Of a DNA stretch of 64,000 nt, positions 49,186 to 55,368 are shown piece after piece. Under the pieces are notes generated by a model. The model had not been told where the DNA came from and made no database searches. It was given only the letters and a program-made list of their open reading frames with translations. The stretch is from Bacteroidales bacterium (GTDB lineage Bacteria; Bacteroidota; Bacteroidia; Bacteroidales; JAADGE01). The position numbers were made by a program, and so were the translations under genes. The stretch covers positions 1-64,000 of the forward strand of contig JAIORQ010000049.1 in NCBI GenBank assembly GCA_021108035.1, given 5' to 3'. The first letter of the stretch is position 1, and each line of letters opens with the position of its first letter.

Positions 49186-50229
49186 ATGAGAAAATTTTAC
49201 AGCACAACAGCAATATCTGTATTACTGATAAGCATTATTTTATGCTCATGCAGTTCAAAAAACTTATTAACTTTAAGCGTTACAGAACCGGCCTCGGTAT
49301 ATATTTCTTCAAACATTAAAACAATTGGTATTATTGACAGAAGTTTGCCTTCGGAAAAAAATAAAAAAATGGACAAACTTGATAAAATTTTATCTGTAGA
49401 AGGCAAAAATTTGGATAAAGACGGAGCACATGAATCTGTTGTCGGTCTGTTTGATGAACTAACAAATAATAATAGATTTTCTGAAGTGAAAATAATTGAT
49501 AACGTTGATGTAAGGAGTCCGGGACTTGGTATTTTTCCGTCAGCACTTTCTTGGAAAACAATTGAACAAATTTGTAATGAAAATAATGTAGATGCCATCT
49601 TTGTATTATCATTTTATGATACAGATGCAAAAATTGATTATAAAGTTGTTCCAATTGAAATTATCGGTCCTTTAGGTGTGAAAGTTCCGGCTGTTGAACA
49701 TCATGCAACAATTGCTACCTTAATAAAAACCGGATGGAGAATTTATGATCCTGTAAACAAATTAATTCAGGATGAATATTTGGTAAATGAGAATGTGGTA
49801 TTAAAAGGTATCGGAATTAATCCGGTAAAAGCTGCTAAAGCAATAATGGGAAGAAAAGAGGCCGTTTTACAAGTAAGTAATGAAATTGGCCATAATTATG
49901 CATTAAGAATACTTCCTTACAGTATAAGAGTTTCCAGACACTATTATGTCAGAGGAACAAATAATTTCAAAACAGCAAAACGCAGAGCACAAACAGGTAA
50001 CTGGAACGGAGCAGCTGAACTGTGGGAAAAAGAAGTTTCAAACCCTAAAAGAAAGGTAGCCGGCAGAGCTTGTTATAATATGGCAATTATCAATGAAATT
50101 AACGGTGATCTTAATGCTGCTGTTGAATGGGCAACAAAATCTTATACCGATTATAAAGACAAAATGGCTCTTCGGTATCTCAATGTGCTTAAATACAGAA
50201 TTGAAAAAAACAAACAATTACAGCAATAA
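49186..50229 (+). CDS. DUF6340-like lipoprotein
   Basis: A 347-residue lipoprotein: signal peptide and lipobox (LCSCSSKN, Cys22). Following it, LTLSVTEPASVYISSNIKTIGIIDRS is a typical opening of this Bacteroidota family, and a TPR-like helical region is at the C-terminus (about 265-340; AELWEKEVSNPKRKVAGRACYNMAIINEINGDLNAAVEWATKSY). No catalytic motif is visible. Envelope assembly or a scaffolding function is possible, but the function is unknown. A 20-bp palindrome lies directly after the gene. Confidence 0.75.
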   Translation: MRKFYSTTAISVLLISIILCSCSSKNLLTLSVTEPASVYISSNIKTIGIIDRSLPSEKNKKMDKLDKILSVEGKNLDKDGAHESVVGLFDELTNNNRFSEVKIIDNVDVRSPGLGIFPSALSWKTIEQICNENNVDAIFVLSFYDTDAKIDYKVVPIEIIGPLGVKVPAVEHHATIATLIKTGWRIYDPVNKLIQDEYLVNENVVLKGIGINPVKAAKAIMGRKEAVLQVSNEIGHNYALRILPYSIRVSRHYYVRGTNNFKTAKRRAQTGNWNGAAELWEKEVSNPKRKVAGRACYNMAIINEINGDLNAAVEWATKSYTDYKDKMALRYLNVLKYRIEKNKQLQQ

Positions 50230-50235
50230 ACAGAA

Positions 50236-50284
50236 TCACTATCGTACCATTTAAATTCTTCGGGTTTAAATGGTACGATAGTGA
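50236..50284. terminator. Perfect 20-bp inverted repeat with 9-base loop
   Basis: The arms 50236-50255 and 50265-50284 are fully complementary over 20 bp (TCACTATCGTACCATTTAAA and its complement). This is the strongest hairpin in the window. It lies 7 bp past the stop of the DUF6340-like gene. The plus-strand 3' side has A residues and no T run, so if it is a terminator it is atypical. It may instead protect the RNA 3' end or mark the edge of the accessory region. Confidence 0.7.
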
Positions 50285-50476
50285 TAAAAAAATCTTATCT
50301 TATTTGCAGCAAATACACTCTAAACATAATTTGCAGCGAGTTCAAAATTAATGATAAATTATAATTACCTTCAATAAATCATATAGAACATATAATTTTT
50401 CCAAATACAATGAATAATGTAATTGGCTTAATATCTGCGATTTAATAATGTTTTTTTTGAAAAACATAATAACTCA

Positions 50477-50622
50477 ATACAATACCTATAAGAGGCATAG
50501 TTCAACTGCATTCTCTAAACAATTGTTTACAAATTATTTTGAATCATATCTTTTTAACAGTATTTTTTGTTAATTTTGAGTACTCGCATTCTGTTTGTTG
50601 CAACTGTTGACAGAATGCTTAA
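50477..50622. repeat. Direct repeat of about 145 bp, copy 1
   Basis: About 90% identical to 51990-52133 in the same orientation, 1.51 kb apart. Together they flank the 413-residue gene. Each has GTTCAAC near its left end (50500-50506), an internal pair GCATTCTGT/ACAGAATGC near its right end (50586-50594 and 50610-50618), and a GTTRRRY-like heptamer just past the end (GTTAAAT at 50625). This recalls integron attC sites, although the spacers are unequal. Alternatively it is a duplicated promoter region. Confidence 0.7.
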
Positions 50623-50640
50623 GCGTTAAATGTTAAAACA

Positions 50641-51989: not shown

Positions 51990-52133
51990 ATACAATAGCC
52001 ATAAGAACATAGTTCAACTACATTCTCTCAACAATTGTTTACAAATTATTTTGAATCGTATCTTTTTAACAGTATTTTTTGTTAATTTTGAGTACTCGCA
52101 TTTTGCATGTCGCAACTGTCGATAGAATGCTTA
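51990..52133. repeat. Direct repeat of about 145 bp, copy 2
   Basis: Counterpart of 50477-50622. GTTCAAC is at 52012-52018 and a GTTRRRY-like GTTGAGT at 52137-52143. The two copies diverge immediately after the common GAATGCTTA, just before these heptamers. Between the copies is one gene; after this copy comes the remnant at 52163. Confidence 0.7.
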
Positions 52134-52162
52134 TATGTTGAGTAATATTAAAAAAAATATTT

Positions 52163-52423
52163 ATGAAAACTAAAACAATCTTTTTTTCATTAATTTTCTC
52201 TCTGATAATCTTTTTTTGTTCAAATATATTTGGACAGGGGGAATAAAATTGAAGATAATAGTTACACATCAGACAGAAACATTGAAAAAAATATACTTAT
52301 AAATATGACAGCAAAGGAAATGTAATTGAAAATAACTGTTACACATATGACGGAAGTTTACTCCGTAAATATTCCTACAATTATAAATATATTATTGAAA
52401 GAGAAATCGAATATTATAAGTAA
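52163..52423 (+). pseudogene. Decayed secreted YD-repeat-like protein
   Basis: A signal peptide (MKTKTIFFSLIFSLIIFF, then CSNIFGQGE) is followed at once by a frame break. The next pieces can be read in other frames: KIEDNSYTSDRN, then KYDSKGNVIENNCYTYDGSLLRKY ending IEYYK and a stop. The pattern KYDxKGNxIE with YTYDGSL is that of short RHS/YD-like repeats in secreted Bacteroidota proteins. At least two frameshifts and loss of most repeats make a product unlikely. Confidence 0.65.
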
Positions 52424-52466: not shown

Positions 52467-53735
52467 ATGAAACCAAAAATAATATTAACAATAATATCCA
52501 TTGTTATAAGTAATTTTGTCATATCACAAAACACTATAAAGAGTTGTCCCTCTGTAAGCAACGATTTGCAACAAGCTTTCGGCAATAAAATTATTAAAAT
52601 AAATCAAACTGATTTAAGAGAAGATTTTAAAGATTTAGAGTTTCTAAAAAAGATTATAGGCAATAAAAGATTTGTTTTATTAGGAGAAAGTAGCCACGGT
52701 GTGGAAGAATACAGTATGATAAAAGAAAGATTGATTAAATTTCTTCATCAAGAAATGGGATTTGAAGTAATTTTATTTGAGAGTGATTTATTTGACTGTA
52801 ATACCTCTTATATGATTTGTGACAGCTTTAACACAGCTGAATTTATGAAAAATTCAATATATAATGCTTGGCATACTGATATTAACTTGAAACTTTTTAA
52901 ATATATAAAAGAAAAAAAGAACAGTGATAATCCTTTATTTCTGTCCGGCTTTGATATTAAAACAGGTATAAATAAAGTGACTGCAAATTATAAACTATAT
53001 GATTATTATAAAAAGTATTTCTCAACAGAAGGTTTTATAGAATTTGTTACATTAGATTCAATTACTAATAATTATTTCAGAAATGTAATACTATACGGAA
53101 GAGAAAAAGATTTTAATGATTCATTATCATCAAGTTTGTTTAACAGGTATAACAAATTGCTTAATCATATTAATAAAAATACAGAAGATATTAACAAGAA
53201 AATTATTGAACGAGTTATTCTTAATAAAAAGTGTTTAATAAACATAATTAATACAGCAAAAAACGATCCTTCTAAATATCTTGCAATGCGTGATAAGTGT
53301 ATGGCTGAAAATATTGAATGGATTGCCGGTAATTTATTTCCTGAAAAAAAAATTATCATTTGGGCACATAACGGACATATAAGAAAAAATATGGATCACA
53401 GGAAAAATATTCCCACTATGGGCTTCCTTCTTTCAGAAGAAATCAAAGAACAATCATATATTATCGGGCTATATTGTCTCAAGGGTTCTCTTGCAGGAGG
53501 AGGAGACAGGAGAGTATATAACGTAAATTGTTTAAGAAAGAATAGTTTAGAAGCAATTATCTGTAATACAGACTACGAAATTTCATTTATTGATTTTACT
53601 AAAAAGTATAGCATAAACCCTAATAAAAAAATTTTTCTGTTTAAACAGAAAAAAACGATTAGCCAAGTAAAGCAATCATATGACGGGTTATTGTTTATTA
53701 AGAATATTTCCCCGCCGAATTATATTAAAAATTGA
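52467..53735 (+). CDS. Erythromycin-esterase-family protein, copy 1 (motif intact)
   Basis: A 422-residue protein with a signal peptide (about 1-20), probably periplasmic. It belongs to the erythromycin esterase family (PF05139): VLLGESSHGVEE (71-81) carries Glu74 and the catalytic-base His77 (equivalent to His46 of EreB), VILFESDLFDCN has the next acidic residue, and WAHNGHIRKN near 296-305 holds the later His pair. The family hydrolyses macrolide lactones or, more generally, unknown esters in Bacteroidota. Secretion and low similarity make macrolide activity uncertain. A near-duplicate follows, with a 522-bp identical tract (52698-53219). Confidence 0.85.
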   Translation: MKPKIILTIISIVISNFVISQNTIKSCPSVSNDLQQAFGNKIIKINQTDLREDFKDLEFLKKIIGNKRFVLLGESSHGVEEYSMIKERLIKFLHQEMGFEVILFESDLFDCNTSYMICDSFNTAEFMKNSIYNAWHTDINLKLFKYIKEKKNSDNPLFLSGFDIKTGINKVTANYKLYDYYKKYFSTEGFIEFVTLDSITNNYFRNVILYGREKDFNDSLSSSLFNRYNKLLNHINKNTEDINKKIIERVILNKKCLINIINTAKNDPSKYLAMRDKCMAENIEWIAGNLFPEKKIIIWAHNGHIRKNMDHRKNIPTMGFLLSEEIKEQSYIIGLYCLKGSLAGGGDRRVYNVNCLRKNSLEAIICNTDYEISFIDFTKKYSINPNKKIFLFKQKKTISQVKQSYDGLLFIKNISPPNYIKN

Positions 53736-53885
53736 AAAGTTATAGGCACTAATTATACATATTGTTATATATCTTCACAGCTTATTAGAACTAAAGAATC
53801 AGGAGCCGGACATGTATACATTTGCCCTTTTTAATGGCATAAAGATTGTTATTTATCAATAAATATTATCTAAAAGAACAAGAAA

Positions 53886-55172
53886 ATGAGAAAAAAGGGA
53901 GTATTATTTTTAGTAAGTTTTATTATTAGTTTTGTTACTTTATCACAAACAAATAGTGGAAAAAAAATATCAGCCTATATAAAGTGTCCGTCTGTAAGTA
54001 ATGATTTAAAACTTGCATTTAATAAAAATATTTTTGAAATAAACACTACAGATTCTGTCGAAGATTTTAAAAATTTTAATTTTTTAAAAAAAATCATAGG
54101 CAATAAAAGATTTGTTTTATTGGGAGAAAGTAGTCAAGGTGTGGAAGAATACAGTATGATAAAAGAAAGATTGATTAAATTTCTTCATCAAGAAATGGGA
54201 TTTGAAGTAATTTTATTTGAGAGTGATTTATTTGACTGTAATACCTCTTATATGATTTGTGACAGCTTTAACACAGCTGAATTTATGAAAAATTCAATAT
54301 ATAATGCTTGGCATACTGATATTAACTTGAAACTTTTTAAATATATAAAAGAAAAAAAGAACAGTGATAATCCTTTATTTCTGTCCGGCTTTGATATTAA
54401 AACAGGTATAAATAAAGTGACTGCAAATTATAAACTATATGATTATTATAAAAAGTATTTCTCAACAGAAGGTTTTATAGAATTTGTTACATTAGATTCA
54501 ATTACTAATAATTATTTCAGAAATGTAATACTATACGGAAGAGAAAAAGATTTTAATGATTCATTATCATCAAGTTTGTTTAACAGGTATAACAAATTGC
54601 TTAATCATATTAATAAAAATACAGAAGATATTAACAAGAAAATTATTGAACGAGTTATTTATAATAAAAAGTGTTTAATAAACATAATTAATACAGCAAA
54701 AAACGATCCTGTTAAATATTATGCAATGCGTGGTAAGTGTATGGCTGAAAATATTGAATGGATTGCCGGTAATTTATTTCCTGATAAAAAAATTATCGTC
54801 TGGGCACATAACAAACATATAAGAAGAAATATGGATCACAGGAAAAACATTCCAACTATGGGCTTTCTTCTTTCAGAAGAAATCAAAGAACAATCATATA
54901 TTATAGGGCTGTATGGTCTCAAGGGTTCTCTTGCAAGAGGAGACAGAAGCGTATACAATGCAAATTATTTAAGAAAGAATAGTTTAGAAGCAATTATCTG
55001 TAATACAGACTACGAAATTTCATTTATTGATTTTACTAAAAAGTATAGCATAGATCCCAATAAACAATTTTTTCTGTGTAAAGAGAAAAAAACGATTAGT
55101 CAAGTAAAGCAATCATATGACGGGTTATTGTTTATTAGGAATATTTCCCCCCCGAATTATATTAATAATTGA
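53886..55172 (+). CDS. Erythromycin-esterase-family protein, copy 2 (catalytic His replaced)
   Basis: A 428-residue paralogue with signal peptide (about 1-20). The motif is GESSQGVEE, with Gln84 in the place of the catalytic His (codon CAA versus CAC), while Glu81, the next acidic segment and the His pair in WAHNKHIRRN remain. The protein is therefore probably inactive as an esterase, or acts differently. The DNA at 54138-54659 is identical to 52698-53219 with a constant 1440-bp offset, whereas the signal peptide, the N-terminal part and the C-terminal part have clearly diverged. This mosaic is the mark of gene conversion between older duplicates. Confidence 0.85.
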   Translation: MRKKGVLFLVSFIISFVTLSQTNSGKKISAYIKCPSVSNDLKLAFNKNIFEINTTDSVEDFKNFNFLKKIIGNKRFVLLGESSQGVEEYSMIKERLIKFLHQEMGFEVILFESDLFDCNTSYMICDSFNTAEFMKNSIYNAWHTDINLKLFKYIKEKKNSDNPLFLSGFDIKTGINKVTANYKLYDYYKKYFSTEGFIEFVTLDSITNNYFRNVILYGREKDFNDSLSSSLFNRYNKLLNHINKNTEDINKKIIERVIYNKKCLINIINTAKNDPVKYYAMRGKCMAENIEWIAGNLFPDKKIIVWAHNKHIRRNMDHRKNIPTMGFLLSEEIKEQSYIIGLYGLKGSLARGDRSVYNANYLRKNSLEAIICNTDYEISFIDFTKKYSIDPNKQFFLCKEKKTISQVKQSYDGLLFIRNISPPNYINN

Positions 55173-55184
55173 TAAGTAAGTTTT

Positions 55185-55368
55185 GAAAAAAATGTTGCTC
55201 TTTGGAATGCTTCTCAAATCATGCAAAACAAAGACCGAGAAAATAAAGCATTTTTACAGCACTAACAGATAAGATTTGATTAGAAACAGTGTTATAGATG
55301 CCGGTTTATGTCACGGAGCAACAGGTACAGCACACATTTTTTTGAACAAACCCGTCCGACAGCTTTGA
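55185..55368 (+). pseudogene. Remnant of a LanC-like lanthionine cyclase
   Basis: In the frame starting at 55273, the peptide DLIRNSVIDAGLCHGATG followed by TAHIFLNK ends at a stop at 55366. GLCHG with the following G and A is the zinc-site region typical of LanC-type cyclases, where Cys and His are metal ligands. The preceding pieces (for example LWNASQIMQNKDREN, ALTDKI) fit the same family only after frame changes, and an in-frame stop lies at 55270. Only a fragment of a normally about 400-residue protein is left. No LanB or precursor peptide is visible nearby. Confidence 0.55.

What the first reader, a model, noticed from the sequence alone, without database searches (positions are those of the whole stretch)
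52467..55172. Esterase-family pair homogenised by gene conversion, ending at a lost catalytic His
522 bp (52698-53219 and 54138-54659) are identical with constant 1440-bp offset, while both outer parts have diverged strongly. The last differing position on the left is the third base of the codon that is CAC (His77) in copy 1 and CAA (Gln84) in copy 2. This His corresponds to the general base of erythromycin esterases. The conversion tract starts 1 base after it, so a catalytically dead copy is being kept alongside an active one, or the difference has been protected from conversion.
Basis: partly seen in the sequence, partly recalled or inferred. Interest (0 to 1): 0.65.

Follow-up and report, generated by a model that had tools for sequence, protein, structure and literature searches.

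The report
Gene-converted esterase pair, one missing histidine
Two neighbouring secreted esterase-like genes in a Bacteroidales-type genome have repeatedly copied DNA from each other, and one of them has lost a histidine that every relative examined keeps for catalysis; this is a clear but fairly ordinary case of gene conversion beside a probable inactive enzyme copy.

Summary
A 522-bp stretch (52698-53219 = 54138-54659) is identical in two PF05139 (erythromycin-esterase-superfamily) genes, copy 1 (52467-53735) and copy 2 (53886-55172). It is far beyond chance (0 of 20,000 permutations) and does not reflect constraint: the same stretch is 27% different in a third paralogue. Two corrections. 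(1) The outer parts are not equally diverged: the right side differs by only 7%, the left by 37%. (2) The left edge is mainly a mosaic junction. The first ~190 bp of copy 1 are 92% identical to a third gene on another contig (C84), and from about 52656-52662 on copy 1 is copy-2-like. The genes are thus old paralogues with non-homologous flanks, overwritten in at least two episodes, the latest being the 522-bp tract. The lost His is real: the position equals EreC His50 (catalytic base), is His in 72 of 72 other homologues examined and Gln only in copy 2, which also has Asp-to-Gly beside the catalytic Arg. Copy 2 is intact, predicted to fold well, and not evolving faster than copy 1. The one-base adjacency of tract and His codon needs no 'protection'. 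In passing: dispersed 126- and ~165-bp repeats here look like integron attC sites.

The parts
52467..53735 (+). copy 1: secreted erythromycin-esterase-superfamily protein, 422 aa, predicted active
   Evidence: PF05139 1.8e-28; keeps His77, Glu74, Glu105, Arg275, His304
53886..55172 (+). copy 2: paralogue, 428 aa, Gln at the catalytic-base position; probable pseudoenzyme
   Evidence: PF05139 1.4e-24; Gln84 and Gly283 unique among homologues; AlphaFold2 pLDDT 92
52698..53219 (+). identical tract in copy 1 (latest conversion)
54138..54659 (+). identical tract in copy 2
52467..52655 (+). 5' block of copy 1 (signal peptide and first ~63 codons), 92% identical to the C84 paralogue, 63% to copy 2
52656..52697 (+). 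short copy-2-like block between the mosaic junction (52655/52662) and the tract; 3 differences, the last being the His/Gln base
53220..53735 (+). right block, 7.3% different from copy 2; similarity stops at the stop codon (older conversion)
52695..52697 (+). codon CAC, His77 (EreC H50 equivalent)
54135..54137 (+). codon CAA, Gln84
54732..54734 (+). codon GGT, Gly283 in copy 2 (Asp276 in copy 1); neighbour of the Arg equivalent to EreC R261

Best explanation
Copies 1 and 2 are old paralogous secreted hydrolases of the erythromycin-esterase superfamily lying in tandem. Homologous recombination without crossing-over (gene conversion) has overwritten one with the other at least twice: an older event covering about 52656 to the stop codon, since diverged by about 7%, and a recent one covering 522 bp in the middle, not yet diverged. 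The 5' block of copy 1 shares its origin with a third paralogue on contig C84, so copy 1 is a mosaic. Copy 2 has independently lost the general-base histidine and the aspartate beside the catalytic arginine and is most likely an esterase with little or no activity that is still able to fold. Shown: identity, mosaic, conservation of the residues, predicted fold. Inferred: direction and timing of the events, loss of activity.
For: Identical tract beyond chance. Copy 1 versus the C84 paralogue: 92% in the 5' block but 73% in the tract and 71% in the right block; copy 1 versus copy 2: 63%, 100% and 93%. Tract dS is 0 between the copies but 0.80 against C84, so it is not constrained. Informative sites switch from C84-like to copy-2-like between 52655 and 52662. 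Upstream and downstream flanks of the three genes are not detectably homologous and similarity ends at the stop codon, against a recent tandem duplication. His at this position in 72 of 72 other homologues with a residue there, Asp276 in 63 of 72. EreC H50 is the catalytic base and its mutation cuts activity about 1000-fold (PMC7979712). The copy 2 model matches BcR135/BcR136 and EreC (Foldseek E 6e-24 to 1.5e-16). A same-genus genome (G009) has two partial members 96% identical in their overlap.
Against: Which copy was donor cannot be told: polarised changes are 14 in each copy, 12 unresolved. The relative age of the C84-type 5' exchange and the older body conversion is not resolved (Fisher P 0.28). 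Unequal crossing-over with loss of an intermediate copy would leave similar marks. The genome is a fragmented assembly with contigs that end inside 126-bp repeats, so a 522-bp exact repeat inside one contig had to be resolved by the assembler.
Confidence: 0.72

Rival explanations
1. Unequal crossing-over in a former array of three or more tandem members, followed by deletion, rather than non-reciprocal conversion, produced the chimeric copies.
For: The two genes are direct repeats 1.44 kb apart, which supports such exchange; at least three source sequences are visible.
Against: A two-edged internal tract with older similarity on both sides needs a double exchange or conversion; flanks of the copies show no shared remnants.
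Confidence: 0.15
2. Assembly artefact: the assembler collapsed two similar regions into one consensus and used it twice.
For: Short-read-like assembly that breaks at 126-bp repeats; an exact 522-bp repeat inside a contig is hard for such data.
Against: Both ORFs are intact across all four junctions; the neighbouring 93%-identical right flank was not collapsed; a few hidden SNPs would not change the conclusion (P < 1e-11 with 5 hidden differences).
Confidence: 0.08
3. The His/Gln difference is protected: selection keeps copy 2 as a non-catalytic partner and conversion events that cross the codon are removed.
For: The tract edge abuts the codon; copy 2 is intact, not accelerated (14 versus 14 derived changes), right-flank dN/dS 0.41; two active-site positions are changed in the same copy.
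Against: A tract always ends at a difference; the codon is one of 14 between junction and tract, so adjacency has a chance of roughly 1 in 14; the mosaic junction 36-42 bp upstream already limits the homology. dN/dS 0.41 is a pairwise mean of both copies.
Confidence: 0.15
4. Copy 2 is active despite Gln84, with altered chemistry or substrate.
For: The remaining catalytic positions (Glu81, Glu112, Arg282, His311) are conserved.
Against: Gln is not expected to act as a general base; mutation of this His lowers Ere activity about 1000-fold (PMC7979712); no other homologue has Gln.
Confidence: 0.12

Closest known systems
BcR136 / BcR135 (Bacillus cereus, PDB 2QGM, 3B55/2RAD), erythromycin-esterase superfamily
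   Same: Same fold and two-lobe architecture; best sequence and structure matches; reported to cleave p-nitrophenyl butyrate, BcR136 not macrolides (PMC6109786)
   Different: About 17% identity in the structural alignment; secreted tandem paralogues here; copy 2 lacks the motif His
EreA-EreD macrolide esterases (EreC PDB 6XCQ/6XCS)
   Same: Catalytic residues E47, H50, E78, R261, H289 of EreC map to E74, H77, E105, R275, H304 of copy 1
   Different: Far below the NCBIfam cut-offs for EreA and EreB (26-48 versus 750 bits); no reason to call it macrolide resistance
Gene conversion between the tuf genes of Salmonella (PMC5485169)
   Same: Intragenic conversion between two similar genes of one chromosome; a modelled average walk length of 500 nt fits a 522-bp tract
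   Different: tuf copies are nearly identical and functionally redundant; here the copies differ at the active site

Membership tests
Erythromycin esterase superfamily (PF05139) | Profile match over the curated cut-off | tested here: met
   100.7 and 87.9 bits versus 26.4
Erythromycin esterase superfamily (PF05139) | Fold of BcR135/BcR136/EreC | tested here: met
   Copy 2 model, Foldseek probability 1.00, TM 0.64-0.76
Active Ere-type esterase (copy 1) | Catalytic-base His (EreC H50) | tested here: met
   His77
Active Ere-type esterase (copy 2) | Catalytic-base His (EreC H50) | tested here: not met
   Gln84; 72 of 72 other homologues have His. Copy 2 is filed as a homologue, not as an active esterase
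Active Ere-type esterase (both copies) | Ester hydrolysis | not testable with these tools
   No assay
Ere macrolide-resistance esterases | NCBIfam EreA/EreB score over cut-off | tested here: not met
   Copy 1 47.6 and 26 bits, copy 2 38.1 and 21.3 bits, versus 750
Gene conversion between paralogues | Identical tract too long for the divergence of its flanks | tested here: met
   0 of 20,000 permutations
Gene conversion between paralogues | Tract not explained by constraint | tested here: met
   Same stretch 73% identical, dS 0.80, against the C84 paralogue
Gene conversion between paralogues | Non-reciprocal transfer seen by comparing strains | not testable with these tools
   No second genome of the species held; only 2 of 14 genomes of the genus carry this subfamily
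Integron attC sites (repeats at 50495 and 52007) | Inverse core RYYYAAC, paired L boxes, core beginning GTT, ORF following on the same strand | tested here: met
Integron attC sites (repeats at 50495 and 52007) | Integron integrase in the same genome | tested here: not met
   No TIGR02249 match over cut-off in the own genome; best candidate C90:5213-6319 has 199 of 265 bits and lacks model positions 180-238
Integron attC sites (repeats at 50495 and 52007) | Stable folded bottom strand | tested here: inconclusive
   Bottom strand lower in most copies but only by a few kcal/mol; z-scores -1.65 and -1.12 for the two window copies

The most novel reading that the evidence does not exclude
Copy 2 is a selected pseudoenzyme partner of copy 1: conversion keeps the shared central part (and so the common fold or interface) identical while the active-site differences are kept apart, a mixed concerted/divergent evolution that would let cells keep an active and a non-catalytic version of one secreted protein.
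Probability: 0.13. Interest if true: 0.55.

Novelty: new member of a known kind. Interest (0 to 1): 0.3.

Why it matters
It is a clean natural example of repeated conversion within a bacterial paralogue pair, with a third-gene mosaic, in which an apparently catalytically disabled copy persists next to an intact one. It matters mainly as a caution: automatic annotation would call both genes 'erythromycin esterase', although neither is near the resistance enzymes and one lacks the catalytic base.

Tried and rejected
Recent tandem duplication followed by one conversion: rejected because the flanks share nothing and the 5' parts are about dS 1.2 apart. Identity by constraint: rejected (dS 0.80 for the same stretch against C84). 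Donor direction by polarising changes: unresolved (14/14/12). Pseudogene decay of copy 2: no stop, no frameshift, no faster change. Phage or plasmid origin: no phage match, only remote plasmid matches (under 38% identity). Rfam: nothing credible. Integrase in relative G003 (426 bits): no copies of the two repeat families beside it, so not linked to the repeats.

Full report
What was checked. The two ORFs (52467-53735 and 53886-55172) and the 522-bp identity were confirmed to the base. Both proteins match PF05139 and begin with a signal-peptide-like stretch. The identical run is not chance: with 40 differences over the 1074 aligned columns from 52656 to the end, none of 20,000 permutations gave a run of 522 (longest 311), nor of 215 third positions (longest 185).

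Correction of the flanks. The right flank differs at 37 of 510 columns (7.3%), the left at 70 of 189 (37%), and the 42 bp just left of the tract at 3. So the strongly diverged part is only the first ~190 bp.

A third gene explains the left part. The own genome holds a third close member on contig C84 (L015, minus strand, next to the contig end) and a remote fourth on C42. Copy 1 is 92% identical to the C84 gene up to 52655, then 73% (tract) and 71% (right block); against copy 2 it is 63%, then 93-100%. Sites that tell the two sources apart switch between 52655 and 52662. Copy 1 is thus a mosaic. Since 145 bp upstream and downstream of the genes show no homology beyond shuffled controls (79 bp upstream for the C84 gene, whose contig ends there), and the similarity of copies 1 and 2 ends at the stop codon, they are not a recent tandem duplicate. 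The simplest history: old paralogues; an older conversion from about 52656 to the gene end (now 7% apart, dS 0.15); a recent one of about 522 bp (dS 0). The order relative to the C84-type 5' exchange (dS 0.27) is not resolved (Fisher P 0.28).

Constraint is excluded as the cause: the tract region is 27% different (dS 0.80) from the C84 gene and 33% from the G009 gene.

Assembly. The genome is 116 contigs, several ending inside 126-bp repeats, so an exact 522-bp repeat within one contig deserves caution. But even 5 hidden differences would leave P < 1e-11 against the flank rate.

The histidine. In the phmmer alignment to EreC copy 1 His77, Glu74, Glu105, Arg275 and His304 correspond to EreC H50, E47, E78, R261 and H289 (the crystallised protein is H289N, which is why that position reads N in the alignment). 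PMC7979712 names H50 as the base that activates water, with about 1000-fold loss on mutation. In an alignment of 75 members, most from the same phylum, copy 2 is the only one with another residue there (72 of 72 others are His). Copy 2 also has Gly instead of Asp beside the catalytic Arg (Asp in 63 of 72) and Lys where copy 1 has Gly in AHNGH, a variable position. Codons at the His position are CAC, CAA, CAT (C84) and a His codon in G009, so Gln is derived. Copy 1 also has derived changes (for example Cys at 337 where the close relatives have Gly); polarised changes are 14 in each, so copy 2 is not decaying faster. Its model is confident (pLDDT 92.2, pTM 0.89) and matches BcR135/136 and EreC.

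Does the edge at the His codon mean anything? A tract must end at a difference, and only three exist between the mosaic junction and the tract. Being in one of 14 codons is not remarkable. Protection by selection is not excluded but has no positive evidence.

Distribution. Only 2 of 14 genomes of the genus have the subfamily; in the other (G009) two partial copies, both cut by contig ends, are 95.9% identical over 438 nt, hinting that pairs arise or are homogenised repeatedly; strain variation in that assembly is an alternative.

Surroundings. The pair lies downstream of two copies of a 126-133-bp dispersed repeat (50495-50627, 52007-52139) that flank a DUF4932 gene. This repeat has at least 23 matches in the genome, and a second ~165-bp family lies 25 bp before the C84 gene. 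Both have the layout of integron attC sites: inverse core, paired L boxes, core GTT with divergence right after it, and in most cases an ORF on the same strand shortly after. No integron integrase over cut-off is in this genome. Complete integrons are reported as rare in Bacteroidetes (PMC9024848). The conversion junctions lie inside coding sequence, so these sites do not explain them.

Verdict. A real, well-supported gene-conversion mosaic with a probable pseudoenzyme copy. Ordinary in mechanism, moderately interesting in detail.

Noticed in passing
50495-50627 and 52007-52139; G000 contigs C16, C24, C29, C42, C43, C46, C49, C50, C56, C58, C79, C84, C89, C102 and others: A dispersed 126-133-bp repeat (at least 23 matches) with integron attC layout (inverse core RYYYAAC, paired L boxes GCATTCT/AGAATGC, core GTT followed by variable bases), usually followed shortly by an ORF on the same strand; several contigs end in it. 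Suggests a large or scattered cassette array in a Bacteroidales-type genome.
   Followed up: partly
C84:85780-85858 (L015/L100 end), L114 6843-7008, L115 5552-5716 and 6110-6274: A second ~165-bp repeat family with R/L-box symmetry (ATAAC-AAGA-GCTAAAAA ... TTTTTAGC-CAATC-GTT), at least 12 matches, one 25 bp before the C84 esterase paralogue; in a 558-bp tandem unit at the ends of C90 and C96.
   Followed up: partly
L114 5213-6319 (G000:C90): Tyrosine recombinase of 368 aa with an extra N-terminal domain, 199 bits to the integron-integrase model (cut-off 265) but lacking its positions 180-238, about 0.5 kb from a ~165-bp repeat site at a contig end; similar proteins in other genomes of the genus.
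   Followed up: partly
L128 / L132 (G003:C39:3418-4353): A clear integron integrase (426 bits) in a same-genus genome, on a small 5.2-kb contig without the two repeat families; true member or contamination not settled.
   Followed up: partly
52164-52422: Relic reading frame after the second repeat: a lipoprotein-like start (MKTKTIFFSLIFSLIIFFCSNIFGQGE) that soon stops, with a degenerate 77-bp-spaced internal repeat.
   Followed up: no
55278-55345: Short intergenic stretch reading roughly NSVIDAGLCHGATGTAHIF, resembling a fragment of a LanC-like protein; the region downstream of copy 2 looks like gene debris.
   Followed up: no
50235-50285: Perfect 21-bp inverted repeat with a 9-bp loop just after the ORF 49186-50229; no credible Rfam match.
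   Followed up: no
L098 and L099 (G009 C244, C284): Two partial esterase paralogues, each cut by a contig end, 95.9% identical over 438 nt, with identical runs of 53-88 nt: perhaps another homogenised pair.
   Followed up: partly
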